IMG/VR virus record: IMGVR_UViG_3300009514_000017
Location: 1 to 64,000 of that record
Strand: one strand, 5' to 3'
DNA from: a virus
DNA: 64,000 nucleotides
Of the stretch, positions 2,222 to 64,000 are shown in pieces. How positions within the stretch are numbered: the stretch's first letter is position 1; every line of letters starts with the position of its first letter. A model generated the notes under the pieces. That model was not told where the DNA came from and did not search any database. It was given only the letters and a program-made list of their open reading frames with translations. The translations under genes were made by a program, and so were the position numbers.

Positions 2222-3094
2222 TTGGATAGCAAGGAGCAAGCCTTCGATGAGATCATGGAGAAGCTGGCTGTTCTGAAGCCCGCTAATAGGCTGCCGTATA
2301 CTCCAGCTCTGCCTGTAATACCTAATGCACACAAACCTCTCGCCTCGATTCAAAAGCGAGAGGTAGCGATGTGGCAGGAAGCCAAGAAGTCGAACTGGGA
2401 TCCCCAATTCACCAAACCGCTGTTGCGCTCTATGGAACCTCTCATTCAGAAGAGGTCCAGCCTGTACAAGAACCGTGGCGTCGAAATCCCACATAAAGCC
2501 GTGGACTTCGAGCATAGACGCCTGGCTCTGGAAGCTATCAAGACCTACGACCCCAACAGAGGAACCAAGCTTGGAACCTGGGTGACTGGAAGATTGAAGA
2601 ACGCTTCCAAGTTCATCGGTCAGAACCAGAACACAGCAAGAATCGTCGACGCCATCTCCGCTAAGATTGGAGACTACCAGCGTTTCAAGTCTGAATTGTC
2701 AGATCAACTAGGTCGTGAACCAACAGCTCAAGAAATCCATGACAACTTGATGAAGATCGACCACGACTTCGAGAGGTTGAGGGGAACCTCTCTTCGTGAA
2801 ATTCATCGTCTGGATAAGGAGCAGCGCAAAGATCTGTTCAGCACTGGGTCTGAAATAAACATGTCGGGTGCAGCGAGAACTCTAGATTACAACAAGGAGT
2901 TGATGCACACGATCATGGATGAATTGACTCCAGAGGAAAAAAAGGTTCATGTCCTGACGATGGGACTGGAAGGAAATCCAAGATTGCCTCCAGGACAGAT
3001 AGCCCGCAGACTCCATATGGACAACTCTAAGGTGTCCAAGATTCGCACCTCCATCCTCAAGAAGATGGAGCCATACAGGGTGGATCTACTCTGA
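2222..3094 (+). CDS. Sigma-70-family RNA polymerase sigma factor (290 aa)
   Basis: Directs RNA polymerase to promoters. Region 2 is visible at about residues 62-130: a helix with AVDFEHRRLALEAIKTYDP and then NRGTKLGTWVTGRLKN, the usual YDP-x-RG...W signature. A region-3-like helix with LGREPTAQEI is at 163-172. Region 4 is at about 228-285 (LTPEEKKVHVLTMGLEG, then helix-turn-helix GQIARRLHMDNSKVSKIRTSIL). There is no region 1.1, so it is a group 3/4-like short sigma. TTG 2222 follows an AGAGGTTGG ribosome site. The N-terminus MDSKEQAFDEIMEKLAVL is a weak form of the tag in neighbouring small proteins. Its natural partner is probably the phage polymerase whose beta subunit starts at 59757 (inference). 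Confidence 0.85.
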   Translation: MDSKEQAFDEIMEKLAVLKPANRLPYTPALPVIPNAHKPLASIQKREVAMWQEAKKSNWDPQFTKPLLRSMEPLIQKRSSLYKNRGVEIPHKAVDFEHRRLALEAIKTYDPNRGTKLGTWVTGRLKNASKFIGQNQNTARIVDAISAKIGDYQRFKSELSDQLGREPTAQEIHDNLMKIDHDFERLRGTSLREIHRLDKEQRKDLFSTGSEINMSGAARTLDYNKELMHTIMDELTPEEKKVHVLTMGLEGNPRLPPGQIARRLHMDNSKVSKIRTSILKKMEPYRVDLL

Positions 3095-38987: not shown

Positions 38988-38991
38988 ACCT

Positions 38992-39231: not shown

Positions 39232-39269
39232 GACTCCATCCTTTTCTTAGGACACCCCTCGAGAGTCCA

Positions 39270-39872: not shown

Positions 39873-39874
39873 TT

Positions 39875-42695: not shown

Positions 42696-42939
42696 GTCTT
42701 CTAAACTCCCTGAACCGTATGACGTTCGTCTTTTTCGATTCCACTTTCAACCCAAACAGCATCTTAGGGGCTATGACAACAGAGTAAAAGCATCCAAACC
42801 CTGTCAGCCTAACGTTCCTGTCTCCGTTGTTTAGTGCGGCTCTCACTGTCTTGATGGTAGACAGGAGAACCTTTTTCACATCAGCCCTGGTCAGATTGGA
42901 ATCCCTAGCTACCTCTGCAATCAGATCGGAGAAAGTCAT
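42667..42939 (-). CDS. HU/IHF-family DNA-binding protein (90 aa)
   Basis: MTFSDLIAEVARDSNLTRADVKKVL is the usual helical dimerisation half. NVRLTGFGCFYSVVIAP matches the HU strand motif V-x-L-x-GFG-x-F, and the end VIRFREFRR fits the final helix region. The DNA-intercalating arm (usually R-N-P-x-T-G) is replaced by KMLFGLKVESKKTN, so binding may differ. ATG 42939 shares its A with the polymerase stop (TGATG). It probably bends or compacts phage DNA during replication. Confidence 0.8.
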   Translation of the reverse strand: MTFSDLIAEVARDSNLTRADVKKVLLSTIKTVRAALNNGDRNVRLTGFGCFYSVVIAPKMLFGLKVESKKTNVIRFREFRRHDGKVRSGV

Positions 42940-44978: not shown

Positions 44979-44984
44979 TACCTC

Positions 44985-47424: not shown

Positions 47425-47443
47425 TAGTCTTCCTCATGGATGA

Positions 47444-48838: not shown

Positions 48839-48850
48839 ATTCCTCCCGTC

Positions 48851-48925
48851 TCAGGGTGTGTTGAGCATCTCATAACACTCTGGGTCGTACCTTGTCTCAG
48901 ATTTTGGTTGGTTCTTGAAGGTCAA
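48851..48925 (-). CDS. Possible 24-residue peptide
   Basis: TTG 48925 overlaps the stop of the previous gene (TTGA), and the frame ends at TGA 48851. The product ends SETRYDPECYEMLNTP, which looks protein-like, and it would fill the only sizeable gap in this part of the operon. No independent support. Confidence 0.25.
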   Translation of the reverse strand: MTFKNQPKSETRYDPECYEMLNTP

Positions 48926-49248
48926 AGACTGGGGATACCATCACTAGAGCCGTCGTTCAGTTCGGACTCTAGTCCTTGTGGTCTAACAACCAGCTCACCA
49001 ACGGACACGAACAGGTCAGCAGCTATGTCCAATTCCATAGATCTGACTAGCTCGCTCATGATCTCCAGAGTTCTATCACTCCACCCGACCAGCCTTGTGT
49101 TTGGGCCAACTCGGATGTGTGATTCCTCGTTCTGATCTGATGCTAGATAGTAGGTAGACCCGAGGCTGAACGCCTCGCTGTTGAGTTGTGAAAACGTGAT
49201 GTTGGCTATCGACACGTTCGTGAGCTTGCATCCAGAGCCTGGAGTCAT
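48922..49248 (-). CDS. Hypothetical protein (108 aa)
   Basis: ATG 49248 follows AGGAGAGAAC. It has beta strands near the N-terminus (KLTNVSIANITFSQ), a serine/acid-rich middle and a helix (RTLEIMSELVRSMELDIAADLFVSV). The last 20 residues are acidic and flexible. No family recognised. It sits between unknown genes and the DnaB-like helicase. Confidence 0.65.
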   Translation of the reverse strand: MTPGSGCKLTNVSIANITFSQLNSEAFSLGSTYYLASDQNEESHIRVGPNTRLVGWSDRTLEIMSELVRSMELDIAADLFVSVGELVVRPQGLESELNDGSSDGIPSL

Positions 49249-49256
49249 GTTCTCTC

Positions 49257-49637
49257 CTAGAACTTGTAGGCGTCGGGACGACCGCGCTGAGCCAGCATCT
49301 GTCTCAGCTGACTCTCTGCTTCTTCAAATGCCTGCTGCGCTAAGGCCCCAGCATAGTACTTGACCAGGGTCGCAGCCTGCTGGAATGAGGAATCGTCTTC
49401 GTCTCCTTCGTTGCATGCAGCAGACACAGTGAAGGAACCAGATACTCCTGTACCAAAGTCCTTCATGCTGAAGTCCTTTGTAGAAGAAACTCGTAGCTGT
49501 GCGTTTCCGATCAACGGCTGAAATCGTGACATCATTTCCTCGTCAGGTTGCTGGTCGATAGCAAATGGATACATCTCATCACCGAGGATGATCTGCACCC
49601 TGCCAGAAATTCTTGGCTCAACCAGGATAGCGTCCAC
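49257..49637 (-). CDS. Hypothetical protein (126 aa)
   Basis: GTG 49637 overlaps the previous TAG. The N-terminal half is beta (LVEPRISGRVQIILGDEMYPFAI; LRVSSTKDFSMKDFGTGVSGSFTVSAACN). The C-terminal half is one long helix (QQAATLVKYYAGALAQQAFEEAE, then QLRQMLAQRGR). A strand-plus-helix layout with an aromatic core could be DNA-binding, but no family is recognised. Confidence 0.65.
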   Translation of the reverse strand: MDAILVEPRISGRVQIILGDEMYPFAIDQQPDEEMMSRFQPLIGNAQLRVSSTKDFSMKDFGTGVSGSFTVSAACNEGDEDDSSFQQAATLVKYYAGALAQQAFEEAESQLRQMLAQRGRPDAYKF

Positions 49638-50239
49638 TACTTGATCTCACCAAGAAATAGAACTGGCCTAGCTCCAGATACGACAGCCGTGGATTCCATC
49701 TCGTCGTAGGCTTCATCAATCACTTTCTCGAGGTTGTGCTCCTCCAGCCAGACCAGAACGTTCGGGAAGTCGATGTTCCACTCGTATGAAACCAGGGACT
49801 TTTCATTCCCGCTCTTGTCATAGGTCTTCAGTGCCATGAGCTCATCGAGCTTGCCCAATTTGCGCAGCTCATCGAACAACTCGTCTGAAGAGAACCGCCT
49901 CTTGGTTCTTGACTCCACTTTCAGAGTTCCTACCGTGAGCCTGGTAGCGTTTCCTCTAGGTCCCCGAAGGTTATCCGGGTCCAGCTTGATGGCATCTCTC
50001 AGCTTGATTTTAGCTTTAGCCAACTCACCGTTTCGCCGCTCTACCAATCTGGCAATGTGGTCAAGCGCAAGGACGTGCTGAGACATCAAGTGATTGATGT
50101 CTGGCATGGTGTTCCAAGCAGGTATCAAGTATCTACCGGTCTTGAACTCTTCGATGAAATCCTTCATCTCCTGGTCTGCATCCTCGAATGCAGCAACAGC
50201 TATTTCATGTTCCTTCTGTTCAATTATAGGCTGTTCCAT
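49637..50239 (-). CDS. Hypothetical helical protein (200 aa)
   Basis: ATG 50239 overlaps the glycosylase 3' end by 20 bases. Two long charged helices come first (HEIAVAAFEDADQEMKDFIEE; SQHVLALDHIARLVERRNGEL). A basic middle follows (VESRTKRRFSSDELFDELRKL), and the end is Glu-rich. No family recognised. Its place between the uracil-DNA glycosylase and replication genes suggests a role in DNA metabolism. Confidence 0.65.
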   Translation of the reverse strand: MEQPIIEQKEHEIAVAAFEDADQEMKDFIEEFKTGRYLIPAWNTMPDINHLMSQHVLALDHIARLVERRNGELAKAKIKLRDAIKLDPDNLRGPRGNATRLTVGTLKVESRTKRRFSSDELFDELRKLGKLDELMALKTYDKSGNEKSLVSYEWNIDFPNVLVWLEEHNLEKVIDEAYDEMESTAVVSGARPVLFLGEIK

Positions 50240-51059
50240 CTACCATCCTGATTGGCATTGGGGTGCCAAAGTGTTGGTAACGAATTACATCTACTATAGT
50301 CATTGCACTCCTCCACTCGTCTATGGTGGAGGTCCAAGCACCTTCTTTCCTGTTCCAGTCTGCAACTCTGAGCAGGTAGGCTGGGTGGAATGTGGCCATC
50401 ACTGGGTATATGATGGGTGCAATGTTTCCACGAATCTCGACCTCGAAGATCTGACCGTGCTTCTTGGTGATCTCCATCTTCTTTCCCGTCAGCGTTTCCA
50501 ATGCGACCTTGCCTGACGAGATGATCAGTATCGGATCAACGATGTAGATCAAATTCCTGACCCGCTCCCAACAAGCCTTGGCCCAGGCAGCTACCGGTGT
50601 GACGTTGTCTTCTGGACGACATGCCACGATGTTGGTCACGAAGAATTGTTCTCTTCGATACTCGAACATCTTCTCGTGGAAATGAGTCTCGGCTTGACGA
50701 GACGCTCGCTTCATTGGCTTGAACCACTTCCACAACTCCTGGATGCCAGAGTCGTCTGAGGTCATGGCTATGAGCTTGTTCATCAGCCGACCAGAATCTC
50801 CAACGAAAGGGATTCCCGTCTGGTCTTCCACTTCTCCAGGAGCTTCACCGATGATCATTACGTCGGCGTCTGGGTTACCGTCAGCAAACACAATTCCGTG
50901 TTCGCGCTGCTGGTGCAGTGGACATGCCATGCAGTTTTCCCACTGCGAGTACAACTCCTGTAGCTGTTGTGCCTTGTCACCGCTGAAGATTCCCAATGGG
51001 AGTCCGTCGTACTTCTTCGCCTTCAGCTTTCTTGGGCTTCTGGTTTTAGCTGTTGTCAT
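50220..51059 (-). CDS. Family 4-type uracil-DNA glycosylase (279 aa)
   Basis: Removes uracil from DNA. The signature is clear: CMACPL (C43, C46) and VMIIGEAPGEVEDQTGIPFVG (about 70-90, the GE-A-P-G-x-x-E-x-x-x-G-x-P-F-VG motif). These are followed by VTNIVACRPEDN, a fourth Cys in AKACWERV and FHPAYLLR (the HP-[AS]-x-x-L-R motif). The four cysteines would hold a 4Fe-4S cluster. A Lys-rich extension of 20 residues precedes the domain. ATG 51059 follows GAGAGGTTGA. In a phage it protects or edits the genome. Confidence 0.88.
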   Translation of the reverse strand: MTTAKTRSPRKLKAKKYDGLPLGIFSGDKAQQLQELYSQWENCMACPLHQQREHGIVFADGNPDADVMIIGEAPGEVEDQTGIPFVGDSGRLMNKLIAMTSDDSGIQELWKWFKPMKRASRQAETHFHEKMFEYRREQFFVTNIVACRPEDNVTPVAAWAKACWERVRNLIYIVDPILIISSGKVALETLTGKKMEITKKHGQIFEVEIRGNIAPIIYPVMATFHPAYLLRVADWNRKEGAWTSTIDEWRSAMTIVDVIRYQHFGTPMPIRMVDGTAYN

Positions 51060-51521
51060 TCAACCTCTCGTTCCCACCCTCGGTGGTAGGGTGAGACCAG
51101 CGTTAACCGCAGATCTCATCTTCTTATCCTCGAAATACTGGATGAGATTGACGGCCAACTTCATCTGGTTCTCAGAGCTGAGACTAGTCGCCCACTGCGC
51201 AGCGACCGGAGCTATCTGTACAACCTCGTCATCTATGAATGCCAGGCTCATAGTGACAGCAGTCTCTATCATGCCCTCCGGACGCATCTGCCTAAGTATT
51301 GAGAACCTGATGGGGTTCTTCAGATCGATGGCCTGACCAGCGAGTGAAGCCGAACGCTCCACTTGCATAACCTCTCCTATCAAGAAATCACTCCCATTGA
51401 AGTACGCGATTATAACTCGGCTGAAGTTGCAACCGTAGTCGCAGCTGAGAGTTTCAATTAGCTCTTTAACCCTCCTCATCTCTGAGATCTTGTTCTGATA
51501 GTCTTCTGAGCTCATCGTCAT
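51060..51521 (-). CDS. Hypothetical protein (153 aa)
   Basis: Starts inside the helicase 3' end (overlap of about 56 bases) with AAGGA upstream of ATG 51521. It has a helical start (EDYQNKISEMRRVKELIETL) and CDYGC near residue 27. A beta middle (FSRVIIAYFNGSDFLIGEVM; MIETAVTMSLAFIDDEVVQI) and a helical end follow. No family recognised. Coupled to helicase and glycosylase genes. Confidence 0.65.
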   Translation of the reverse strand: MTMSSEDYQNKISEMRRVKELIETLSCDYGCNFSRVIIAYFNGSDFLIGEVMQVERSASLAGQAIDLKNPIRFSILRQMRPEGMIETAVTMSLAFIDDEVVQIAPVAAQWATSLSSENQMKLAVNLIQYFEDKKMRSAVNAGLTLPPRVGTRG

Positions 51522-52935
51522 ACAATCCTTGTAGTTCTGGGGGTAGTGTTTGAGGTTGTATAGAAGGATTCACTTGGTTGAATGTGTACCCCCAATGCTT
51601 CAGATCTCTTCTGACTGACTGACACATACGTTTCAAGGTAGGCATGGTCCAGTCTTCGAAGATTACGAAGATGGGGTTGGGTTTGCCAGGCAGGAATCTC
51701 TGTATCCTGCCCATTGACTGCTGAAGAGACGTCTTGGCTTTGAATGGTGTCAACCAGAACAACAGATCTAGCTCGTCATCATCTACGCCTTGAGATCCTA
51801 GTCTCGAGATGGCAAAGCACACTCGACTGTTCCGAAGCACGTCTGTTCTCTCATGCTTCGGAGTTTCCTGAATGATGATCCCAGACTCCGGGAATATGGC
51901 GTGCATCAATTTCAACTGCGCTTTGGAGTGAGATAGGCAGAGAACCTTCCTGCCCTGATCCAACGCTGTCTTGATGTGCCAATAGCGGTAGATGTTGCTG
52001 GTTAAGTCCACCCCTAGTGCGCTTCGGACGAGTGAGATGTTTCTCGTTGCTCCGATCAGACCGACGTTCGGATCCAACATGACTGGGGTGCGCTGGAAGA
52101 AGATGTCTGGAATTAGATCTTGAGTCAGGTCCGTGTAGAACGGGAGACCGATGTTGCTGGTATAGATTGGATCTAGTCCATCTTCTCTCTTGACTGTTGC
52201 TGTTAGCCCAATTCGGTTTCCAAAGAACGGTGGTGCGGTCAGGCTGAACTTCGGAGCACCAATCTGGTGAACTTCATCGTAGACGATCAGTCCGTAGTAG
52301 CGGAACATCTCTTCTGGAACTTCCCCCTTTTCTATCTTCTGCCAGAGCGTGGTGACCAAAGCTATGACTAAGGGTTTTTGCCACTCGAACTTCTTCCCAC
52401 TGATGATCCCGACACGACCCTTGAAGTTCAACCCTGGATCTTGCTCTCTCCCCTCGGTGTCGTCACCATAGATCGCACGCTCCCATTGGTCCATGATCCC
52501 CCCATCAGGAACAACGACTAGGGTTGGGGCTCCAACCTGTGCTATTTTCTTCAGTGCTAACTTAGTTTTGCCTTTCCCACAAGCCAGATTGAAGATGCCG
52601 TTGTCGTGAGTAGCTAGTGCCTGCCACGCCTTCTCCTGATCTTCGTTTCGAGGGATAACAAGATCTTGGAACTCGACTTTTTGGAATGTAGGACGTAGAT
52701 CTACAAACTCGAAATCGTATTTGGGGTAGTCAGCAACTGATACGAATTCTCTAGGAGTGATAATGTGGTGCTCGGATTCCTCCCAGAGATGTATTACTAT
52801 CTGTCCATCAGGAGTTGGGACCGAGAACTCGAGCGCAGACTTCACCCAGTGAGGTCTGATGTGCCTCTTTGGTAGCCACAATCTATTGGAGATGTAGGCT
52901 TTATCAGGGTCCTTGCGGTAGAACTCCAGATTCAT
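51466..52935 (-). CDS. SF2 DNA helicase, UvsW/RAD25-like (489 aa)
   Basis: ATP-dependent DNA unwinding or branch migration. Motif I is ACGKGKT (118-124), motif II DEVH (220-223), motif III GLTAT (243-247), and motif VI QQSMGRIQRF near residue 405. An N-terminal domain of about 90 residues precedes the RecA folds. GGAGGTTCA precedes ATG 52935. In T4-like systems the corresponding UvsW remodels recombination intermediates and R-loops; here it sits near the head of the replication operon. Confidence 0.85.
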   Translation of the reverse strand: MNLEFYRKDPDKAYISNRLWLPKRHIRPHWVKSALEFSVPTPDGQIVIHLWEESEHHIITPREFVSVADYPKYDFEFVDLRPTFQKVEFQDLVIPRNEDQEKAWQALATHDNGIFNLACGKGKTKLALKKIAQVGAPTLVVVPDGGIMDQWERAIYGDDTEGREQDPGLNFKGRVGIISGKKFEWQKPLVIALVTTLWQKIEKGEVPEEMFRYYGLIVYDEVHQIGAPKFSLTAPPFFGNRIGLTATVKREDGLDPIYTSNIGLPFYTDLTQDLIPDIFFQRTPVMLDPNVGLIGATRNISLVRSALGVDLTSNIYRYWHIKTALDQGRKVLCLSHSKAQLKLMHAIFPESGIIIQETPKHERTDVLRNSRVCFAISRLGSQGVDDDELDLLFWLTPFKAKTSLQQSMGRIQRFLPGKPNPIFVIFEDWTMPTLKRMCQSVRRDLKHWGYTFNQVNPSIQPQTLPPELQGLYDDELRRLSEQDLRDEEG

Positions 52936-52970
52936 TGAACCTCCAACACTCCCCCCCGGAGTGTCGGACT

Positions 52971-53534
52971 CTACTTCTTGGGGATGACAACTGCTGGAAA
53001 CAGGGTCGCCTGCCTGAATGCTAGCAGGGCTTGTTCACAGATGGCTTCTCCAACTCTCAGGGCGATGTTCTTAGAAACCCTAGCCATGAACGTCTCACCC
53101 TGAAACTGCGGCCGGAAGGGTGGAGGAACAGAATAGATGGCATGAAACATCGGATCTTGTACCGACCCGTAAATCCCGATGCCTCCACCGTATGGAGGCT
53201 GGACTCCGGGCATCGCACCGAAGTTCTGAGTTGGAACCGGCTGTAGGCGGTTCGGAATCTGGACCGGGACCATCTGGCCATACTGCTGCTGTGGCGCTAC
53301 AGGAGGCGCTCTGTATGGTGCAGGTGGAGCGTACAGAGGTAGCCTCCGTTGCTGAGGAGGCTGTGGAGCTATGGGAGATGGTGCGGGTCGAAATGCCTGT
53401 GATTGGTACATGGATTCCTGTACCTTCGCGCGGCATTCCGAGTTTACGTCACAACTCTCACACACTCGGGAATCATTCTCGTATGATCCCCAACACTGTG
53501 GTCTTTCAGCGGTTTGGTACTTCCAGTTCGGCAT
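52971..53534 (-). CDS. Cysteine-motif protein with proline-rich linker (187 aa)
   Basis: First gene of the replication operon. ATG 53534 follows CCGAAAGGAGAGTC. The N-terminus has CWGSYENDSRVCESCDVNSEC, a small cysteine knuckle similar to CISCDRLETC of the 37591-37827 product. Residues about 48-135 are Pro/Gln/Ala/Tyr-rich and disordered. The end is a helical domain (ETFMARVSKNIALRVGEAI ... EQALLAFRQATLF). The layout of knuckle, linker and helix resembles the other proline-rich proteins of this genome. Confidence 0.7.
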   Translation of the reverse strand: MPNWKYQTAERPQCWGSYENDSRVCESCDVNSECRAKVQESMYQSQAFRPAPSPIAPQPPQQRRLPLYAPPAPYRAPPVAPQQQYGQMVPVQIPNRLQPVPTQNFGAMPGVQPPYGGGIGIYGSVQDPMFHAIYSVPPPFRPQFQGETFMARVSKNIALRVGEAICEQALLAFRQATLFPAVVIPKK

Positions 53535-53566
53535 GACTCTCCTTTCGGTTGCTAATCTGCCCACTC

Positions 53567-53685: not shown

Positions 53686-54795
53686 ATGAAAACTGCCGGT
53701 GTTGTGTTCGACTTCTACGATGACCCTTCCGGAGAGATTCTGAAGACGGCTTTCCCTACTCAGGAAGCACTACCAGGTTTGATCAAGACGGCGCATATCC
53801 TCAACGATATGGAGAGGAAGGTTCTTAGAGACGAAGCTTACGCGCTCGTGTTTGAAAACGATGGAGTTACTCTTCGCAAGTTTGCCTGTATAGACCCAGG
53901 AAACACCCTGATGTCAGCTGTCTATTTTGAGAAGACGGCTTACAAGCTTCCAGAGGAGCTTAGAGAAGAGGCTCGGACCAAGATAGCTTCGAGGCTGAAG
54001 GAGTTCTTTCCGCCAGATCCACTGGACAAGCTGGCAGTTCATCTTGGGATGTCAAAGAAGCGCGACCCAAGGAAGATGAAGGACGACAACTCTGGCCAGA
54101 AAGATTGGGAGGATAGGACAAATATGGTTCAGGGGTTCGTTGAGGGAGATGATTCTCCTGGTGCAGCTCAGACCAAGACTTCTATGCCGGTAGCATACGA
54201 TGAGGTTAAGGCAGCGGTTCAGTATTTCAATGATCTGTGGCCAGAGATGTCACCGCTACAGAGGCATGAGTTCGCAGAGAAGACTGCATCTCGAGCTGAT
54301 GAGCTAGGCATCGAGGTTTCTGACAGGATGCGTAGGTATGGGTCTACATCTTACGCAGAAGATGTAGACGATCACCTGACGTCCCGCGCAGCCCATGCTC
54401 CTGTATACAAGGAGGTGTATGCCTCCTTGAAGGAGAAGAGGGCCAGTCTGGAGCCAGAGGAGTTTGCAGTTCTGCTTCAGACGGCTGACGACTCCGCAGA
54501 CCTAGTTCGGTTCTACGGCGGTGTTATTCAAGACCCGTACTTCTCGACCTTTGGATACGTTGACAAGCTGGCATCTTGGTCATGGACTGGCCCGACCGGG
54601 GACCATGTGAACTCCGAACAGTTGGATCGTCTGGCGCGCAATGCCAGGCCGCTGCTGAAGAAGCACTTCAGTGACGAAATGGTAGATGAGTTTTGTAAGA
54701 GCCCGGTCGAGATCTTCGAGTCTCTTCCAGATGACATGAAGATCATCTTGTCCAGGTTGGGGAGTGACGAGTTCACCAACTTCGGTGAGAACTGA
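53686..54795 (+). CDS. Unknown protein upstream of the portal cluster (369 aa)
   Basis: I prefer ATG 53686 because GGAG lies 8 nt upstream; ATG 53662 is in frame and would lie almost on the predicted transcription start. The protein is helical and acidic. Short K-T-A tripeptides recur (ILKTAF, LIKTAH, FEKTAY, AEKTAS), as does the pattern EF(F/A)...D.L.KLA (FFPPDPLDKLAVHLG). The middle contains a charged, probably disordered section (KKRDPRKMKDDNSGQKDWED). No family recognised. It may be a head or scaffold-like protein by position before the portal, which is inference. Confidence 0.7.
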   Translation: MKTAGVVFDFYDDPSGEILKTAFPTQEALPGLIKTAHILNDMERKVLRDEAYALVFENDGVTLRKFACIDPGNTLMSAVYFEKTAYKLPEELREEARTKIASRLKEFFPPDPLDKLAVHLGMSKKRDPRKMKDDNSGQKDWEDRTNMVQGFVEGDDSPGAAQTKTSMPVAYDEVKAAVQYFNDLWPEMSPLQRHEFAEKTASRADELGIEVSDRMRRYGSTSYAEDVDDHLTSRAAHAPVYKEVYASLKEKRASLEPEEFAVLLQTADDSADLVRFYGGVIQDPYFSTFGYVDKLASWSWTGPTGDHVNSEQLDRLARNARPLLKKHFSDEMVDEFCKSPVEIFESLPDDMKIILSRLGSDEFTNFGEN

Positions 54796-54796
54796 T

Positions 54797-55030
54797 ATGG
54801 AGACTGTATCTCTCCACTCTTTTGCAGATGAGCTTCAGCAGATCTTGGAGAAGGATGCGGGACTCAAGGATTTTTTCATCCGAAAGGTTGCACCTGAGTC
54901 CAGCAAGAGGTTAGCTAGAACAAAAGTCGTATCAAACATCACTGGAGCTTTTCCTAGATCAGTCAAGCCGGTTAAACCGATAGACATGGGTGATACGTGG
55001 TTGGCAAAAGCTGGACTTCGACCTGCGTAG
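54797..55030 (+). CDS. Small F-x-D-E-L protein 3 (77 aa)
   Basis: ATG 54797 is one base after the previous stop, with GGTGAG upstream. The N-terminus METVSLHSFADELQQILEKDAG carries the shared tag. The remainder is basic (KRLARTKVVSNITGAFPRSVKPVKP) without recognisable domain. With the other four tag proteins it forms a set of small, otherwise unrelated products around the sigma and portal genes. Confidence 0.7.
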   Translation: METVSLHSFADELQQILEKDAGLKDFFIRKVAPESSKRLARTKVVSNITGAFPRSVKPVKPIDMGDTWLAKAGLRPA

Positions 55031-55037
55031 GTAGTCT

Positions 55038-55970
55038 ATGAACCAGCCAGAGATCGAATTCTACAAGCGCTTGACTGAATTCGTTCCGACTGCTCCTACT
55101 GAAGGCAGTCCTGTAGAGGAACGTTTCAAGGCTGTTCCAGATTACAAGATCCCAGTTAGCCCTAAGAACCTCTTCACTCATCAGGAAATCCACCCCATCG
55201 TTCTAGACCTATCTCTACTAAAGGCTTTCGGTGAGGAGTGGTACTACTGGGAAGTTCCGACTCTGTGGAAGTCCATCCACGACGAGTTCAAGTCCAAGGT
55301 GTCGGAGTCGAACAGAGCCAAGATCAACGCTGTAAGAACTGCAAGAATCACCACCCTACCGTGGGATAGCTGGCACGTTTTCGAGAATGTGGTACTAGCA
55401 CTAGATGGATTTGTTCCACGGTGGGACATCCTACAGAAAGTAGATCTTGAGTCACTGTTCGTAGGAGTGGACATCCTGGAGCAGATCAGACCTGAGGACT
55501 ATTCGGAAGATGTCCGCAACTACATAGCTGCTGTCTTCTTGGATGATGATGTCTTCTTCACCCCTCCACCACTAGAGTTTTCACAGGCAGAAGTCTCGCA
55601 GCCCTATTACCTTTGCAAGGATTGTGGAAATGAGGAGTGGGCGCTACATCACGATGGCATCTGCTCCGTGTGCTCTGGTAGATACGATCCAGAGAACGGT
55701 TTGTCGATGCGGCCTTCCCAAGAAGCCATAGACAAGAAGCTCGGGCAGAACACCGTGTTACGATACAAGTTCGACCCTGGGCCTGAGCAGAGAGTCTGGG
55801 ATCTAGTGGCCAGGTCCAAGAATGAGCAGTCGATTTTGAAGGTGGCTGGTCCAGCAGAGATAGGTGTGTCAAAGCTGCTGGATGCTAGAGACCTCATGAA
55901 CATCAGGCGCAGACAGCTCAAGAACCAGCTGACCGCTCTCAAGTCTTGGCTGAACTCGAGGTCTTCATGA
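55038..55970 (+). CDS. Zinc-ribbon protein next to the portal (310 aa)
   Basis: Mixed helical protein, residues 1-190, with many aromatic residues (EEWYYWEVPTLWKSIHDEF). CKDCG ... CSVCSG (about residues 197-217) is a four-cysteine zinc ribbon. A basic helical end follows (DLMNIRRRQLKNQLTALKSW). No family recognised. Its stop overlaps the next ATG (ATGA). Position two genes upstream of the portal suggests a head or packaging role. Confidence 0.7.
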   Translation: MNQPEIEFYKRLTEFVPTAPTEGSPVEERFKAVPDYKIPVSPKNLFTHQEIHPIVLDLSLLKAFGEEWYYWEVPTLWKSIHDEFKSKVSESNRAKINAVRTARITTLPWDSWHVFENVVLALDGFVPRWDILQKVDLESLFVGVDILEQIRPEDYSEDVRNYIAAVFLDDDVFFTPPPLEFSQAEVSQPYYLCKDCGNEEWALHHDGICSVCSGRYDPENGLSMRPSQEAIDKKLGQNTVLRYKFDPGPEQRVWDLVARSKNEQSILKVAGPAEIGVSKLLDARDLMNIRRRQLKNQLTALKSWLNSRSS

Positions 55971-56503
55971 TTGATTATTCAGCCTTCACTGATGAGCTGG
56001 AGAAGATTGGTGGAGTAGGAACCTTTCTTCAGAAACAGATCAAAAACGTTGGCAACACGATTAATGACTTTGCTAATCCCATAAAATCCATGAAGGCTGG
56101 ATGGGAGTCTGGTGCTGCCGGTAGATCGTTTGGTGGATGGGGCGGTAAGCTACTGACAGACAAAAATAAGCCGTCGTTCTGGCGTCATCTACCTGTAGGA
56201 CCCAAGGCTCAGATAACAGGCTTTACTGCACTTGAAGCTCCAGGCGCCCTCGCCAAAGAAGACCCTAGTGGCGAGGGGCGATCTCGTCTGCGTCGTGTAT
56301 CTGGAACCCTTGGTGGGACCGGAGGTTTTTTGGTCGGTGGTAGACATGGACTCCTTGGCTCTCTGGTTGGTGGAGCCATTGGCCAGAAGATGTTGAGTGG
56401 GTCTGTAGGATTAGGGGAGAGCACTGTAGAAGCTGTCAAGCAACTCAAACGTCAGAGAAAGTTTAATGCATTGAATACAACGCAGACCCCCGTGGGGCCG
56501 TAA
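55967..56503 (+). CDS. F-x-D-E-L protein 4, Gly-rich (178 aa)
   Basis: ATG 55967 overlaps the previous stop. It begins MIDYSAFTDELEKIGGVG, the clearest copy of the shared tag. After a helical stretch, the middle and end are rich in Gly with small hydrophobics (GTLGGTGGFLVGGRHGLLGSLVGGAIG), possibly a membrane-active or packing segment, followed by a basic helix. Function unknown. It directly precedes and is coupled to the portal gene, so a virion location is plausible. Confidence 0.72.
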   Translation: MIDYSAFTDELEKIGGVGTFLQKQIKNVGNTINDFANPIKSMKAGWESGAAGRSFGGWGGKLLTDKNKPSFWRHLPVGPKAQITGFTALEAPGALAKEDPSGEGRSRLRRVSGTLGGTGGFLVGGRHGLLGSLVGGAIGQKMLSGSVGLGESTVEAVKQLKRQRKFNALNTTQTPVGP

Positions 56504-58509
56504 TGTCGTCAGATCTAGACTTCTACAACTCCCTGTCTGGCGTATCCAGATTCTCTGGTGTTCGTGGTCGGCTCTCGCAAGGTGGGTCGTTTCCAGCTCG
56601 CTATCCATCCCCATTCTTCGATCTCGGTCATACTTGGCTACCACACTCGATTGGCAAGCTGCATCAGTGGTGCCGCTACTATTACCTAGTCAATCCACTG
56701 ATCAATGCCGTCATTCACAAGATGGCGGAATATCCAATCACTGAGATTGTCGTCAACGAGGTAAACAAGACCACCAAGGAAAAGTGGGAGCACATTCTAG
56801 GACAGCATCTTCGTATTCGTGCGTTCCAGGTAGAAGCTGGCCTCGACTACTTCACTTACGGGATCTGCATTATCACGATGCACTTCCCATTCGAGAAGTA
56901 TCTCGCTTGCACGAACTGCAAGTTCGAGGACAAGGCCAGCAACCTCAAGTACAAGTGGCGCAACCTGAACTACATCCTTCGTTGTCCCAAGTGTGACCAC
57001 GAGGGGCCAACCAAGGTTCGAGACCAGTACCTGAAGGACTTCCGTCGAATCAGGTTGATGAGATGGAATCCAGAGTACGTCTACATAGAGCAGGGGTTTG
57101 CTGGCGCGGAGCCCATCTACACTTTTATGGTTCCGAAGGGTCTCAAAAACGAGATCATGATGGGCAAGACCCGCGTTCTCAACACGGTTCCAGATATCTA
57201 CATTGAAGCGTTGAAGCGCAACAGGAATATAGCGTTCGCTCCAGAGAACATGTTCGTGATGAAGCGGCCAATCATCTCTCAGAGAGAGACGGGTTGGGGT
57301 ATGCCTCTCATCCTTCCTGTTCTGAAGGACGCTTTCTACCTTCAGATCTTGCGCAAGTCTCAGGAAGCTATAGCTTCTGAGCATATCGTTCCACTTCGTG
57401 TTCTGTTCCCTCAGGCAGGAAGCGGAACGAGCGATCCATATACCTCAATCCCAATTGAGTCTTGGAGGTCCCGTATAGAGCGTGAGATCACCAAGTGGAA
57501 GTACGACCCAAACTACATTCCTGTTCTTCCTCTACCTATTGGGTCTCAGTCCATTGGTGGAGATCAGAAAGCTTTGAATCTGCACCAGGAGATCAGCCTC
57601 TGGTCTGAGCAGATCGTTGCAGGAATGGGAGTGCCGAGAGAGTTCGTGTTCGGCGGCCTTACATTCTCTGGCTCCAACGTGTCGATGAGGATGTTGGAGA
57701 ACGCTTTCATCAACTACCGTATCGACCAAGACAACCTCTTGAATGAGTTCATCATCAGGAGAGTTGCAGACTACATGGGTTGGCCATCGGTGCGCGTATC
57801 TATGCGCAAGTTCAAGATGGCAGACGATCTACAGAGGATGAGCTTCCAGTTCCAGCTCAACCAGGCAATGAAGATCTCAGACGAGTCTCTGTTGAAGGAA
57901 TGCGACCACGATCCAGTAGTTGAGAAGGAGCGCAAGGAGCGTGAGGTTGGAGCTCAACTCGAGTACCAGCGCAAGATGCAGCTATCACAGGCTGAGACTC
58001 AGGGTCAGATGTTGCTTGTTCAGTCTCGCTATCAGGCTGCTGCCCAAAGCATGTTGGCTCCGGCTATGCCTGTGCAGCCTGGAGCTCAACAGGGTGCAGC
58101 ACAGCTCGGTGGCCAGCAGGGTGAGATGGTTTCAGGAGACCAACTTGGAATTCCTGGAGTTCCTGGTGACGTTTCTGTCTCTCCAGAGAATGCTCAACAG
58201 CAGCCAGTTGAAGGAGTTCCGACTGAAGCTCAGAGTCCTCTCAGCATGAACACACAGGGTGCTGGGATAGACATTAGGTACGTTGCTAAGAGGGTACTGG
58301 CTCAAATCCAGAAGCTGTATGCCCAAGATCCACAGCAGGCGAACATGAAGCTTGAGGAGATCAGGGCATCCAATCCACAGCTATATAGTCTTCTCATCCA
58401 GATGGCTAACAGTAGGGTTGGCTCTCAAACCGATCCACTAAATCCGGTTCAGTCTCCGCAGCCACAGGTGAAGCCACCTCGTAGCCCCAAGTCTCCAGCG
58501 GCTGCGTGA
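56503..58509 (+). CDS. Portal protein with embedded zinc ribbon (668 aa)
   Basis: The dodecameric portal is the DNA gate of the capsid. The mid-region shows the portal pattern: LWSEQIVAGMGVPREFVFGG, then SNVSMRMLENAFINYRIDQD and LNEFIIRRVADYMGW. C136/C139 and C161/C164 form a zinc ribbon inserted in the N-terminal third, which I do not know from well-studied portals. The last 170 residues are Gln/Pro/Ala-rich with a helix. ATG 56503 overlaps the preceding TAA. Its stop lies 2 bases from the convergent stop of the next gene, with no terminator between. Confidence 0.82.
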   Translation: MSSDLDFYNSLSGVSRFSGVRGRLSQGGSFPARYPSPFFDLGHTWLPHSIGKLHQWCRYYYLVNPLINAVIHKMAEYPITEIVVNEVNKTTKEKWEHILGQHLRIRAFQVEAGLDYFTYGICIITMHFPFEKYLACTNCKFEDKASNLKYKWRNLNYILRCPKCDHEGPTKVRDQYLKDFRRIRLMRWNPEYVYIEQGFAGAEPIYTFMVPKGLKNEIMMGKTRVLNTVPDIYIEALKRNRNIAFAPENMFVMKRPIISQRETGWGMPLILPVLKDAFYLQILRKSQEAIASEHIVPLRVLFPQAGSGTSDPYTSIPIESWRSRIEREITKWKYDPNYIPVLPLPIGSQSIGGDQKALNLHQEISLWSEQIVAGMGVPREFVFGGLTFSGSNVSMRMLENAFINYRIDQDNLLNEFIIRRVADYMGWPSVRVSMRKFKMADDLQRMSFQFQLNQAMKISDESLLKECDHDPVVEKERKEREVGAQLEYQRKMQLSQAETQGQMLLVQSRYQAAAQSMLAPAMPVQPGAQQGAAQLGGQQGEMVSGDQLGIPGVPGDVSVSPENAQQQPVEGVPTEAQSPLSMNTQGAGIDIRYVAKRVLAQIQKLYAQDPQQANMKLEEIRASNPQLYSLLIQMANSRVGSQTDPLNPVQSPQPQVKPPRSPKSPAAA

Positions 58510-59756: not shown

Positions 59757-62700
59757 ATGGCACGCATATCCCCGACTGAGGTCTTTGATGGCCTCAAGAA
59801 AAACACAGTCGAGTCCATCAAGTCCTACTTCCCGTTTGAAGAGGGAGGTAAGAGGCTTGAGGTCGAAGACGTTTGGGTCGATGACAAACTGGACGTCAAC
59901 GATATTCAATCACAACAGAAGGCCAAGCTCGATGACAAGACCTGGGGTGTAAAGGTCAAAGCCAAGATGAAGCTCACCGATATCAAGACCGGCAAGGTCT
60001 TGGATCGAGCTACGTCCAGTGTGGCCACTCTGCCGAAGATGACGAATCGCTTCGGCTACATCGTTGGTGGAAACGAGTATCAGGTAGACAATCTCTTCAG
60101 ATTGAAGAGCGGTGTCTACACCCGAATCCAGAACAACGGCGAGTTGGAGTCTGAATTCAACTTGGCCAAGAGCCCTGTGGGTGGTCGCGGGTTCTCGGTC
60201 CACTTCGATCCAGAACGCAAGAAATTCTCGCTTCTCTACAAGACAGCCAAGATTCCACTCCTCCCAATCCTCAAGAGCATGGGGATGGCAGACGATGACA
60301 TCAAGAAGAACTGGGGCAAGGAGATCTACGAGGCGAACTCCCCCAAGTCTCAGAAGGCTTATGACCAAGCACTGTTGGATTTCCAGACCAAGACCAGTGG
60401 AGATGCCACGTTCAAAGGGTCGAAAGATCCTAAGGAGTACATCAAGGAGTTCTTTCATCAGTCTGAGTTGCGACCAGACACGACCTCCATCACTCTAGGA
60501 AAGCCATTCGATAGAGTGAGCCACGAGGTTCTATCGATTGCAGCCAACAAGGTTCTCGGTGTGTCTCGAGGAACCAACGAGCCTGACGACCGTGACAGTC
60601 TGGCGTTCAAGGAAATCACCTCCACCGAGGACTTCATTCCAGAGAAGATCGAGAGGTCTGCTAGGGCTATCCGGGGCAAGCTTCGTCAGACTATGGGGAG
60701 GAAAGACAAGATCAAGGAGATTATCCCTTCCGGTGAAAGAGGTCTGTTTGGTCAGCCAGTACATGACTTCTTTACCAAGGGCGGGTCTGTTGCTGAGTTG
60801 TCTGACCAGACCAACCCATTGCAGATCTTGTCTGCACATCGCAAGACTACCTTGATGTCAGAGCAGTTCGGCGGCATGAAGTCCGAACACTCTCTCACCC
60901 CAGAGATGAAGGTGGTCAACCCTAGCCACATAGGGTTCCTTGACGTGATGAAGACTCCCGAAAGCAGTCGCTCGGGTATCACCGTCAATCTATCGCTACA
61001 GGCACAGAAGAGAGGTAAGGAGCTCGAGGCTCCTGTCTTTGATCTGAAGTCAAAGAAGTTGAAGTACGTCTCAGCCCACGAGTTTCATGGACGCAATTCT
61101 GTATTGCCAGACCAAGTCAAATGGGTTGATGGCAAGCCGGTGCCTATAGCCAGCCGTGTCAAGATGAAGGTCGTTGGCGGGGCGATAGAAGAGCGTCCGT
61201 GGACCGACGCAGATTCTGTAATGCCAACTGCCAAGGGCATGTTTGACTTCACCTCGAACATGATTCCTTTCTTGCCGTCAGACCAGGGCAACCGTGTGTC
61301 GATGGCAGATAAGCAGATGGAGCAGGCTATTAGCCTGAAGCATCGAGAAGCTCCACTCGTTCAGACCAAGACCGAGAAGGAAAAGACGTTCGACAAGGTG
61401 TTGGGAAACTTTGCCTCTCAGAGATCACCCGTTGCCGGGAAAGTAACCGCAGTTAGAGGTAATCAGGTTACGGTCAAGGACGCGAAGAACAAGAGTCATA
61501 ATGTCCACTTGTACGATCACTTCCCTACCAATGACCCAAAGGGAATGTTCCATTCCGAATCGTCTGTGAAGGTCGGAGACCATGTCTCAAAAGGCGATAC
61601 TCTGGCGGATACCAACTTCACAAAGGGTGGAAACCTAGCACTTGGAACCAACCTCCGAGTTGGTTACGTGCCATTCAAGGGCTACAACTTCGAAGACGGT
61701 GTCGTCGTATCTGAGACGGCATCTAAGAAGTTGACCTCCGAACATCTGTACAAAGAGTCACTATCTGTGTCCCCAAACGATGGGGATCGTATTGACAAGA
61801 ATAGATTTGTTGCGGTGGCCAAGCGCAAGATCGCTCAGATGCAGCCAGGAGAGCTGGACGCCATTGGTAGTGATGGTGTGGTCCGCGTTGGTTCACATGT
61901 TCAACCAGGTCAGGTGTTGGTTACTGCGGTTGGTAAAAGCAACCTGGACAAGAGAGATCATGCTCTAGGTTCATTCGGTCGTAGAGCCATGTCATTGGAG
62001 AAGGACAAGTCTCTGGTTTGGAACCACTCCAGTCCTGGAAAGGTGGTTCGTGTAGTCAAGAGCCCTAATGGTAAAGAGATAAAGGTTCACGTCAAGACTG
62101 AGGAACCTTTGGTCGTCGGCGATAAGGTGGCCGGACGCCACGGTAACAAGGGCATCGTCACTAAGATTCTTCCCGATGACGAGATGCCATTTACTGTTGA
62201 TTCTAAGACCAAGGAGAAGAGGCCCATACACGTCCTTCTCAACCCGACCGGCGTGCCTTGCTACGACGATAAGACTGAATTCTTGACCGACACTGGATGG
62301 GTTCAAGCTCCCAAGATCCATGAAGAGCATCGGTTCGCTACGATCAACCCGAAAACTCTAACTCTTGAATTCCAAGATCCAGAGGAGGTTTACCACATAC
62401 CTTACACGGGTAAGATGTACAGGATTCAGAACCAGCAGCTTGACCTACTAGTTACTCCTCACCACAAGCAGTTCACTGCCAAGAGAGGGAACCAGAAGCT
62501 GTATGGAGCGTTGGATTTAGATGACCAGGAGCTTCCGTCTCTGTTTTCATTGGATGAAGCACAGGAAATCATAGGCCAACCAAGGCGGTATCTAAAGGCT
62601 GCTAAGTGGAAAGGTGATAGCGCGGCTTTCTACTATATAGAGCCTGGAACTTACGCTGGAGTAGGGCCTAAGCCTACTCATGGAATGAACATCCCAGCAT

Positions 62701-64000
62701 CTATCTGGGCTGAGTTCATGGGATGGTTCTTGTCTGAAGGAAGCACGTACTTCAACAAGGCTAACTACAGCTACGTTACAGAGATTTCCCAAGACAAGAA
62801 TGTAAATCCAGAAAACTATGATCGCATTCGTACGGTCATGGAATTCTTTGGGCTTACGTTGGAGGAGACGGACTCTGGTATTCGCGTTAAGCACAAGGGC
62901 TTATTTGAACGACTGGCTTTGTTGGGTAAGGCTCGAGAGAAGTATATTCCTAGAGAGATCTTGGACATGGAGCCACGGCATTTAAGGCTATTCCTAGATG
63001 CTGCTGTACGAGGTGATGGATCTGAGACTTGGGATGCAGAGACGGGTCACTACGGTAACAAGAAGTATTGGACTGCTTCTAAAAGGTTGGCTGATGGGAT
63101 TCAGGAAGTAGCTGCCAAGCTTGGAATTGCAGCCAATATAAAGCGTGAGAGTCGTAGAGGTGATGACGCTTGCTACTACATTTCTTTGAGTGGGAGTCGT
63201 TTAGCGCCATGGGTAAATTGGTCATCAACGACTAAGTCTAACCAGGTTGAAGAGTGGGAGGACTACGACGGAGTAGTTCACTGCGCTACAGTTCCGAACG
63301 GAACTCTCTTGGTTCGTAGGAATGGAAAGGCAGTCTTCAGCGGGAATACAAGAATCAACGTTGGTCAGGTTCTAGAGACAGCAGCAGGGAAGATTGCTGA
63401 GAAGACTGGTAAGCCTTTCATAGTCGACAACTTTGGTGACCCCAAGTCCAACAATCGCAAGATGGTAGCGGATGCTCTTAAGGCACACGGGCTCACTGAT
63501 GAAGAAGATGTCTACGACCCGAGCAATGTGAAGAAGCCAATCGGTTCCGTCCTGGTTGGTCCACAGCACATACTCAAGTTGCAGCACCAGGTTGAAAAGA
63601 AGCTTACCTCCCGTGGTGGTTCAACTACTGCTGGTGGAGCTGGACTCAAGTTCGACAGTGACAGGCAGCCACAGAAGGGTGGGGAGCACGGGTCTCAGGG
63701 ATTTGGTCAGCTGGAACTCTACTCGTTGCTTGCACATGGGGCCAAGCACAACATCCGTGAGTTTGCCACGTACAAGTCCGACGAACAGAATGAGCAGTTC
63801 TGGGCGCAACTACAGTCCGGTAGAGAGCCGCCACCTCCAAAGGTGCCATTCGCTTACAACAAGTTTGAAGCTCTCCTAAAGGGGTTGGGTGTCAATGTAG
63901 AGAAGCATGGAACTGAGATTCAACTTCTACCATCAACAGACAGGCAGACTATTGCTGCTGCTGGTGGAGCGTCTGGGGAATTGAAGAAAGCCAACTTGAC
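59757..64000 (+). CDS. rpoB: DNA-directed RNA polymerase beta subunit with intein (partial, 3' end outside window)
   Basis: ATG 59757 follows TTAGGTGAGG; the frame is open to the window end (more than 1414 codons). Bacterial beta landmarks appear in order: GGNEYQVDNLFRLKSGVYTR, FLPSDQGNRVSMADKQME, LALGTNLRVGYVPFKGYNFED and VGDKVAGRHGNKG (the two catalytic-site lysines). After these come LNPTGVP/TRINVGQVLET split by an intein, and GGEHGSQGFGQLELYSLLAHGA with KSDEQ. The chain is one polypeptide, unlike the split subunits of phiKZ-type phages. Without the intein it would be somewhat shorter than the E. coli beta. Beta-prime should lie downstream. Confidence 0.93.
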   Translation, partial: MARISPTEVFDGLKKNTVESIKSYFPFEEGGKRLEVEDVWVDDKLDVNDIQSQQKAKLDDKTWGVKVKAKMKLTDIKTGKVLDRATSSVATLPKMTNRFGYIVGGNEYQVDNLFRLKSGVYTRIQNNGELESEFNLAKSPVGGRGFSVHFDPERKKFSLLYKTAKIPLLPILKSMGMADDDIKKNWGKEIYEANSPKSQKAYDQALLDFQTKTSGDATFKGSKDPKEYIKEFFHQSELRPDTTSITLGKPFDRVSHEVLSIAANKVLGVSRGTNEPDDRDSLAFKEITSTEDFIPEKIERSARAIRGKLRQTMGRKDKIKEIIPSGERGLFGQPVHDFFTKGGSVAELSDQTNPLQILSAHRKTTLMSEQFGGMKSEHSLTPEMKVVNPSHIGFLDVMKTPESSRSGITVNLSLQAQKRGKELEAPVFDLKSKKLKYVSAHEFHGRNSVLPDQVKWVDGKPVPIASRVKMKVVGGAIEERPWTDADSVMPTAKGMFDFTSNMIPFLPSDQGNRVSMADKQMEQAISLKHREAPLVQTKTEKEKTFDKVLGNFASQRSPVAGKVTAVRGNQVTVKDAKNKSHNVHLYDHFPTNDPKGMFHSESSVKVGDHVSKGDTLADTNFTKGGNLALGTNLRVGYVPFKGYNFEDGVVVSETASKKLTSEHLYKESLSVSPNDGDRIDKNRFVAVAKRKIAQMQPGELDAIGSDGVVRVGSHVQPGQVLVTAVGKSNLDKRDHALGSFGRRAMSLEKDKSLVWNHSSPGKVVRVVKSPNGKEIKVHVKTEEPLVVGDKVAGRHGNKGIVTKILPDDEMPFTVDSKTKEKRPIHVLLNPTGVPCYDDKTEFLTDTGWVQAPKIHEEHRFATINPKTLTLEFQDPEEVYHIPYTGKMYRIQNQQLDLLVTPHHKQFTAKRGNQKLYGALDLDDQELPSLFSLDEAQEIIGQPRRYLKAAKWKGDSAAFYYIEPGTYAGVGPKPTHGMNIPASIWAEFMGWFLSEGSTYFNKANYSYVTEISQDKNVNPENYDRIRTVMEFFGLTLEETDSGIRVKHKGLFERLALLGKAREKYIPREILDMEPRHLRLFLDAAVRGDGSETWDAETGHYGNKKYWTASKRLADGIQEVAAKLGIAANIKRESRRGDDACYYISLSGSRLAPWVNWSSTTKSNQVEEWEDYDGVVHCATVPNGTLLVRRNGKAVFSGNTRINVGQVLETAAGKIAEKTGKPFIVDNFGDPKSNNRKMVADALKAHGLTDEEDVYDPSNVKKPIGSVLVGPQHILKLQHQVEKKLTSRGGSTTAGGAGLKFDSDRQPQKGGEHGSQGFGQLELYSLLAHGAKHNIREFATYKSDEQNEQFWAQLQSGREPPPPKVPFAYNKFEALLKGLGVNVEKHGTEIQLLPSTDRQTIAAAGGASGELKKANL
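62259..63347 (+). other. LAGLIDADG intein in the beta subunit (363 aa)
   Basis: Residues 835-1197 of the precursor. Block A starts with Cys1 (CYDDKTEFLTDTGW), block B is LLVTPHHKQFT, block F includes VPNGTLLVRRNGKAVF, and the end is SGN followed by Thr+1. The penultimate residue is Gly rather than the usual His. Two LAGLIDADG-like helices (WAEFMGWFLSEGS and LRLFLDAAVRGDGS) mark a homing endonuclease. Flanks rejoin as LNPTGVP-TRINVGQVLE, identical in layout to intact bacterial beta. Confidence 0.93.

What the first reader, a model, noticed from the sequence alone, without database searches (positions are those of the whole stretch)
59757..64000. Phage-encoded single-chain, cellular-type RNA polymerase beta subunit
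The beta landmarks occur in one chain and in cellular order, including the catalytic GDKVAGRHGNKG. phiKZ-like phages split this subunit, so this is a different lineage. Metagenomic Caudovirales with cellular-type beta and beta-prime have been reported as an early-branching group, and this genome appears to belong to such a group. With a phage sigma factor at 2222-3094 it suggests an autonomous transcription machine.
Basis: partly seen in the sequence, partly recalled or inferred. Interest (0 to 1): 0.8.

Follow-up and report, generated by a model that had tools for sequence, protein, structure and literature searches.

The report
Phage fused RNA polymerase with inteins
A tailed phage encodes its RNA polymerase as one giant protein in which the two large catalytic subunits are fused and both catalytic motifs are interrupted by inteins (self-removing protein inserts); it is a new form of a known deep-branching phage polymerase family, and in a cultured relative the homologous enzyme is among the most abundant proteins detected in the virus particle.

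Summary
The polymerase homology is real, but the gene is not a stand-alone beta subunit. The ORF (ATG 59757) runs to 68636 in the 75,790-bp source record. It encodes a 2,959-aa beta–beta' fusion carrying two inteins: C838–N1200 in beta (GVP|T) and Q1783–N2281 directly after the catalytic Asp triad of beta' (NADFDGD|T). Intein-free relatives fix both boundaries; the spliced enzyme would be about 2,097 aa. Of 121 complete IMG/VR relatives, 117 are one beta–beta' chain, 4 have only the beta' C-terminus separate, and none has a separate beta. Alpha and omega were not found in 15/15 records; a sigma-like hit is present in all. In a tree, all phage enzymes form one side of a fully supported split from bacteria (1.38 substitutions/site), so it is not a recent capture. 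In cultured phage Arash the published virion proteome has the homologue as the most-counted protein, with its beta' C-terminus and sigma, and the gene sits near the portal family-wide: it is probably a virion polymerase. This matches the mReC phages (2020), whose main text does not mention an mReC fusion or inteins. The second intein's family lacks the class 1, 2 and 3 splicing signatures. New variant of a known kind.

The parts
59757..62258 (+). N-extein: RNAP beta part up to the conserved GVP, including catalytic GDKVAGRHGNKG (62118-62153)
   Evidence: Pfam Rpb2_2, _3, _6; motif positions; catalytic residues aligned to E. coli
62259..63347 (+). Intein 1 (363 aa, Cys1...Asn363, +1 Thr) with LAGLIDADG-type homing endonuclease, inserted in LLNPTGVP|TRINVGQ
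   Evidence: Empty site in intein-free relatives, same site filled in L007; Hom_end Pfam 2.4e-5; TliVMA-type intein relatives in PDB by sequence, best E=0.0014
63348..64000 (+). C-terminal part of beta. Beyond the window (same numbering in the source record G000) the same frame continues: beta C-terminus running without a linker into beta' up to NADFDGD (to 65093); intein 2, 499 aa, Gln1...Asn499, +1 Thr, Hint plus LAGLIDADG (65094-66590); beta' C-terminal part with second zinc site, bridge helix and trigger loop (66591-68636, stop)
   Evidence: intein 2: empty site, LAGLIDADG_3 E=1.5e-18, AF2 model pLDDT 83.5 and Foldseek best hit TliVMA intein E=4e-20; beta' C-part: TIGR02386 1e-145
2222..3094 (+). 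Sigma-like factor, probable partner of the polymerase
   Evidence: phrog_351 E=1.8e-12; homologous to virion protein Gp10 of Arash, 26% over 237 aa, E=2e-15; PHROG 351 hit in 15/15 records
56503..58509 (+). Portal-like protein; homologue found at 83 of 91 RNAP loci, typically upstream of the RNAP
   Evidence: phrog_16240 portal E=6.6e-4; synteny, 66 of 86 loci with enough upstream sequence have it within 5 kb upstream; annotated portal at the same place in Arash

Best explanation
The gene encodes the core of a phage RNA polymerase of the mReC type as one polypeptide: beta fused without a linker to beta'. It is translated as a 2,959-aa precursor. Two inteins must excise themselves and rejoin the flanks to give an enzyme of about 2,097 aa, because intein 1 sits between the catalytic-lysine loop and the following conserved region of beta and intein 2 sits directly after the Mg-binding aspartates of beta'. 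The enzyme works without alpha and omega (the fusion replaces the assembly platform), uses a phage sigma-like factor (2222-3094), and is most likely packaged in the virion with that factor and injected to transcribe early genes. The inteins are mobile homing elements lodged in the most conserved sites. Shown: fusion, inteins by empty sites, no detectable alpha or omega, sigma-like gene, conserved catalytic residues, separate clade. Inferred: splicing actually happens, virion packaging in this phage (reported for its cultured relative Arash), early-gene transcription.
For: Single 2,962-codon frame with beta, beta', LAGLIDADG and intein domains. Intein-free relatives show exact empty sites GVP|T and NADFDGD|T. 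117 of 121 distinct complete family members are one beta-beta' chain, the other 4 have beta fused to the beta' N-part, none has a separate beta. Catalytic D460/D462/D464, K1065, K1073, R678, R1106, K334, R425, H936 kept in 36/36. Alpha PF01193 0/15 and omega PF01192 0/15, with positive controls 13/14 and 14/14; PHROG 351 sigma hit 15/15. Phage|bacteria split support 1.0, branch 1.38 (same split). Portal homologue at 83/91 loci. In Arash virions Gp206 (homologue, beta plus beta'N) is the most detected protein (3516 spectra), Gp216 (beta'C) 1210, sigma Gp10 467 (PMC10585845; homology).
Against: No experiment shows splicing or activity of this protein. Intein 2 lacks the canonical residue-1 nucleophile and block B histidine, so its splicing is not assured. 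The virion data are from a relative with only about 30% identity whose beta' C-terminus is a separate chain, and its authors note the enzymes could be carry-over from high expression. The source record is a fragment, and most relatives may be incomplete too, so absence of alpha and omega rests partly on incomplete genomes (Arash, recorded as a complete genome, and Vibrio phage D69 also lack them). Sigma contact residues on the beta' clamp (R275, E295) are not conserved.
Confidence: 0.68

Rival explanations
1. Same fused, intein-bearing core, but a non-virion polymerase made during infection for middle or late genes; its presence in Arash particles would be carry-over.
For: The gene lies among structural genes and would be expressed late; the Arash authors raise carry-over, and replication enzymes also appear in the particle list (PMC10585845).
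Against: Gp206 has more spectra than the major capsid protein, and sigma and beta'C are there too; conserved placement near the portal.
Confidence: 0.25
2. Recent capture of a host rpoBC operon by the phage.
For: Bacterial-type motifs, and a natural rpoB-rpoC fusion exists in Helicobacter.
Against: All 36 phage enzymes form one side of a split with support 1.0 and a 1.38 substitutions/site branch; Helicobacter groups with Campylobacterales. The first beta' zinc site is lost in 36/36. Best bacterial match only about 29-34%.
Confidence: 0.02
3. Intein 2 is a decaying or non-splicing insert and the polymerase of this phage is dead, host RNAP doing the work.
For: Residue 1 is Gln, no His in block B, penultimate Ser instead of His.
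Against: The same architecture with conserved blocks recurs in about a dozen phages at 31-56% identity, in frame, at NADFDGD-type sites, ending LSN|T where the end is present; Hint plus endonuclease fold predicted; a dead copy would not be expected to keep every catalytic residue.
Confidence: 0.08

Closest known systems
mReC RNA polymerases (multi-subunit RNAP-encoding Caudovirales; Weinheimer and Aylward 2020, PMC7481178)
   Same: IMG/VR tailed-phage contigs with HMM-recognisable beta and beta', NADxDGD motif, one deep clade apart from bacteria.
   Different: The paper's main text treats them as beta and beta' subunits and contains no mention of inteins or of an mReC fusion ('intein' 0; 'fused'/'fusion' only for crAssphage). 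Here beta and beta' are one chain with two inteins.
Salmonella phage Arash Gp206 + Gp216 and Vibrio phages D69/D148/D181
   Same: Beta fused to the beta' N-terminal half, gene next to the portal in Arash, sigma-like gene among structural genes in Arash, no alpha or omega found (Arash, D69).
   Different: About 30% identity; beta' C-terminus is a separate gene; no inteins seen in Arash or D69, but a group I intron inside the gene in D181.
Helicobacter rpoB-rpoC fusion
   Same: Linear beta-beta' fusion in one chain.
   Different: Groups with Campylobacterales in the tree; cellular enzyme with alpha and omega (general knowledge).
phiKZ-like vRNAP/nvRNAP
   Same: Phage-encoded two-barrel enzymes without alpha; one of them packaged in the virion (PMC7598289).
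   Different: phiKZ-like enzymes split beta and beta' into 4-5 polypeptides; here they are merged into one.
crAss-like phi14:2 gp66, P23-45 RNAPs, YonO
   Same: Two catalytic barrels in one polypeptide; virion-borne in phi14:2 and P23-45 (PMC7886860, PMC10770324).
   Different: Those lack recognisable sequence similarity to cellular beta/beta' outside the DxDxD region; this one matches the cellular HMMs over most of its length.
Class 2 inteins (Mja KlbA orthologues)
   Same: No Cys1/Ser1 nucleophile, Ser before the C-terminal Asn, Asp in block F.
   Different: Intein 2 has a variable residue 1 in its family (Q, D, L, K, E, F, C), Thr+1 instead of Cys+1, Asp instead of His in block B, and a different host gene.

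Membership tests
mReC RNAP | HMM-recognisable beta and beta', each 800 aa or more, with NADxDGD motif | tested here: met
   Pfam and NCBIfam hits over both halves, NADFDGD at aa 1776-1782; here both are in one ORF
mReC RNAP | Clusters apart from cellular homologues in one phage clade | tested here: met
   FastTree split phage|bacteria 1.0, branch 1.38; no archaea, eukaryotes or NCLDV in the tree
mReC RNAP | Groups with the published mReC reference sequences | not testable with these tools
mReC RNAP | Caudovirales hallmark genes; TerL of PF03237 | tested here: met
   Portal-like gene next door; PF03237 found in 10/15 records, though not in the partial record G000 itself
mReC RNAP | Major capsid protein of PF07068 (Gp23) where an MCP was detected | tested here: inconclusive
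   0/15, and no control genome rang, so absence is not shown
phiKZ-like jumbo-phage RNAP | beta and beta' each split over several polypeptides | tested here: not met
   One uninterrupted frame; 117/121 relatives also one chain
Bacterial rpoBC captured from a host | Nested within a bacterial lineage | tested here: not met
Class 1 intein (intein 1) | Cys/Ser1, block B TxxH, C-terminal Asn, Cys/Ser/Thr+1 | tested here: met
   C1, TPHH, N363, T+1; penultimate is Gly, not His
Class 1 intein (intein 2) | Cys/Ser/Thr at residue 1 and His in block B | tested here: not met
   Residue 1 is Q here and Q/D/L/K/E/F/C across the family; block B reads QII(T/S)DDDxRA(V/I)YG
Class 2 intein (intein 2) | KlbA orthologue, Ala1, His B:10, Cys+1 | tested here: not met
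   Host gene RNAP, X1, Asp at the inferred B:10, Thr+1; shares only the missing nucleophile, Ser G:6 and Asp F:4
Class 3 intein (intein 2) | Cys at F:4 and WCT motif | tested here: not met
   F:4 is Asp in YDLTVP

The most novel reading that the evidence does not exclude
Intein 2 founds a new mechanistic group of inteins that splice without a residue-1 nucleophile and without the block B histidine. The +1 Thr might attack the bond after the polymerase's own third catalytic aspartate directly, perhaps helped by that aspartate or by the invariant DDD of block B. Because this bond lies in the Mg-binding loop, splicing would act as a switch that keeps the virion polymerase inactive until it is processed.
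Probability: 0.3. Interest if true: 0.82.

Novelty: new variant of a known kind. Interest (0 to 1): 0.64.

Why it matters
In the members of this deep-branching phage RNAP family examined here, beta is always fused to at least the N-terminal half of beta', and usually to all of it. That is the opposite of the split phiKZ enzymes and implies an assembly route without alpha or omega. It bears on how the two large subunits evolved, offers a single-gene bacterial-type core enzyme for biochemistry, and predicts rifampicin-resistant early transcription from an injected enzyme in cultivable phages (Arash, Vibrio D69). The gene is also a hot spot for inteins at its most conserved sites, including a family at the catalytic aspartates that fits none of the three described splicing classes and can be tested with a simple expression assay.

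Tried and rejected
Rfam on L022/L024 found no group I intron in the gap inside beta', so that gap is probably a true gene split. The only genome-contig scan returned cellular rpoBC, so no host link could be made. The Gp23 capsid search rang nowhere and says nothing. Pfam at normal thresholds finds no sigma domain at 2222-3094; only PHROG and Arash homology support it. PDB sequence search finds no close relative of intein 2. Considered and rejected: assembly artefact (more than 100 relatives with the same fusion), Helicobacter-like capture, phiKZ or crAss type.
Full report
WHAT IS THERE. The window is bases 1-64000 of a 75,790-bp IMG/VR virus record. The frame in the finding starts at GTG 59748 or, more likely, ATG 59757 (Shine-Dalgarno-like AGGTGAGG upstream) and does not end at the window edge: it continues to a stop at 68636, 2,962 codons from the GTG. 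Pfam finds the beta domains (Rpb2_2, _3, _6, _7), then the beta' domains (Rpb1_1 to _5), with LAGLIDADG, Hom_end and Intein_splicing domains between them; NCBIfam gives rpoC 1e-145 and the beta/beta' fusion models 1e-139 and 1e-112. So the 'single-chain beta' is the first part of a beta-beta' fusion.

INTEINS. Aligning the chain with relatives that lack the inserts shows two exact empty sites: LLNPTGVP|TRINVGQ, filled by a 363-aa insert starting with Cys and ending SGN (62259-63347), and GGFNADFDGD|TMAATIP, filled by a 499-aa insert starting with Gln and ending LSN (65094-66590). One other phage (L007) carries inteins at both sites (55% and 43% identical to those here). Its nearest polymerase relative in the tree, L017, has neither, as expected for mobile elements. 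Their third-position GC (0.49, 0.52) is lower than that of the flanking exteins (0.57-0.62). An AlphaFold2 model of intein 2 from 11 family members (pLDDT 83.5, pTM 0.81) matches inteins with homing endonucleases: TliVMA E=4e-20, PI-PkoII, PI-PfuI.

INTEIN 2 IS UNUSUAL. About a dozen family members were found, every one whose N-side could be read sitting after the NADFDGD-type motif of phage beta'. Residue 1 is Q, D, L, K, E, F or C. Block B reads QII(T/S)DDDxRA(V/I)YG, with Asp where other inteins have His (position inferred from the motif). Block F has Asp (YDLTVPG), and the end is LSN|T wherever the C-terminus is present. By the published definitions (PMC4031507, PMC7664689) this is not class 1 (no conserved residue-1 nucleophile), not class 2 (all class 2 inteins then known are KlbA orthologues with Ala1, His B:10, Cys+1) and not class 3 (no Cys at F:4). 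It shares with class 2 the missing nucleophile, Ser before the last Asn and Asp at F:4. A direct attack by Thr+1 on the bond after the third catalytic Asp is the simplest guess, but this is inference. Another intein lineage at the same site starts with Ser and ends with Asp (L100, L302). Elsewhere in the family inteins sit at TPE|S, GDKL|S, the trigger-loop region and further sites, up to three per chain.

FAMILY. Four IMG/VR scans with polymerase queries and two with intein queries gave 131 distinct loci by an approximate de-duplication. In the 121 with all three parts, 117 have beta, beta' N-part and beta' C-part in one ORF, 4 have beta fused to the beta' N-part with a separate C-part, and none has a separate beta. 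The set is biased towards relatives of the fused queries. Cultured relatives are Salmonella phage Arash and Vibrio phages D69, D148 and D181 (about 30% identity): in Arash, D69 and D181 the beta' C-part is a separate gene, and in D181 a group I intron also interrupts the beta part. A concatenated tree of 36 phage and 19 bacterial sequences (1,987 columns) separates phages from bacteria with support 1.0 and a branch of 1.38; the query sits with L007-L018. No archaea were available, so the root is not addressed.

ENZYME. Aligned to E. coli, the phage enzymes keep the three catalytic Asp, K1065, K1073, D814, R678, R1106, K334, R425 and H936 in 36/36 and the second zinc site in 34-35/36. They lack the first beta' zinc site in 36/36, have Thr at S531 in 36/36 and have lost H526, which suggests rifampicin resistance. 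The end of beta runs straight into the start of beta' with no linker. Alpha (PF01193) and omega (PF01192) were not found in 15/15 long records, including Arash and D69, whereas controls ring in 13/14 and 14/14. A sigma family hit occurs in 15/15, most of them clear, one weak (G004 E=0.02). The sigma-like protein at 2222-3094 is homologous to Arash Gp10 (26%, E=2e-15).

HOW IT PROBABLY WORKS. In purified Arash particles the most detected protein by spectra is Gp206, the homologue of this chain up to the middle of beta' (3516 spectra); Gp216 (the rest of beta') has 1210 and sigma Gp10 467 (PMC10585845). The authors note that carry-over is possible. In the family a portal homologue is found at 83/91 loci, within 5 kb upstream in 66 of the 86 loci with enough upstream sequence, and a homologue of the 381-aa protein encoded directly downstream is found in 70/91. 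I therefore favour a virion polymerase: the precursor is made late, splices, is packaged with sigma, and is injected to transcribe early genes. Fusion, empty sites, undetected alpha/omega and the tree are shown; splicing, packaging in this phage and promoter use are inferred.

RELATION TO KNOWN SYSTEMS. The best filing is the mReC group (PMC7481178), on sequence type, phage genes and deep placement; a direct comparison with its reference sequences was not possible. The main text of that paper contains no mention of inteins, and uses 'fused' or 'fusion' only for crAssphage. A later paper mentions in general terms cellular-type derivatives with fused barrels (PMC10770324), so the fusion itself may have been seen by others. 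Eukaryotic RPB2 inteins near the active site are known (PMC1635734). I found no report in the open library searched of inteins in phage beta/beta' of this type, but that library lacks most subscription journals.

Noticed in passing
G000 1321-1734, 54740-55027, 55889-56500, 73111-74550 (C-terminus), 74964-75743: Short shared motif F[A/T/V]DEL.K in five otherwise different proteins, mostly near the N-terminus (5 seen, 0.5 expected in shuffles; the pattern was chosen after seeing them). It could be a capsid-targeting or protease-processing signal.
   Followed up: partly
L029 7488-7768 and 3691-3898 (Vibrio phage D181): Group I introns (Rfam RF00028, E about 1e-25), one inside the RNAP beta part and one about 2 kb upstream, just before the ORF at 4078; the related phage D69 has an uninterrupted beta gene.
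   Followed up: partly
L211, L212, L210, L216, L053, L020, L024: Phage RNAP chains with one to three inteins at other conserved sites (TPE|S, GDKL|S, trigger loop, near L008 positions 967-984 and 1094); no systematic survey made.
   Followed up: partly
L100, L294, L296, L302: A second intein lineage at the NADFDGD site that starts with Ser (L100, L302) and ends with Asp instead of Asn.
   Followed up: no
window 36593-53564 (- strand): Replication module: family A DNA polymerase (42939-44978), primase, DnaB-type helicase, RecA-like, ResIII-type helicase, Cas4-like exonuclease.
   Followed up: no
G000 73171-74553: ATP-dependent DNA ligase-like protein (phrog_114 E=4e-21) downstream of the RNAP.
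   Followed up: no
OR844998, OR846602, AFYI01000006 and other 'phage' records: Records in the phage collection that appear to hold ordinary bacterial rpoB/rpoC; the Staphylococcus one placed in the tree (L205) groups with Bacilli, so these look like host contamination.
   Followed up: partly
L031 7962-12539 (Arash gp206): Annotated 'RNA polymerase subunit beta' but it also contains the N-terminal half of beta'.
   Followed up: yes
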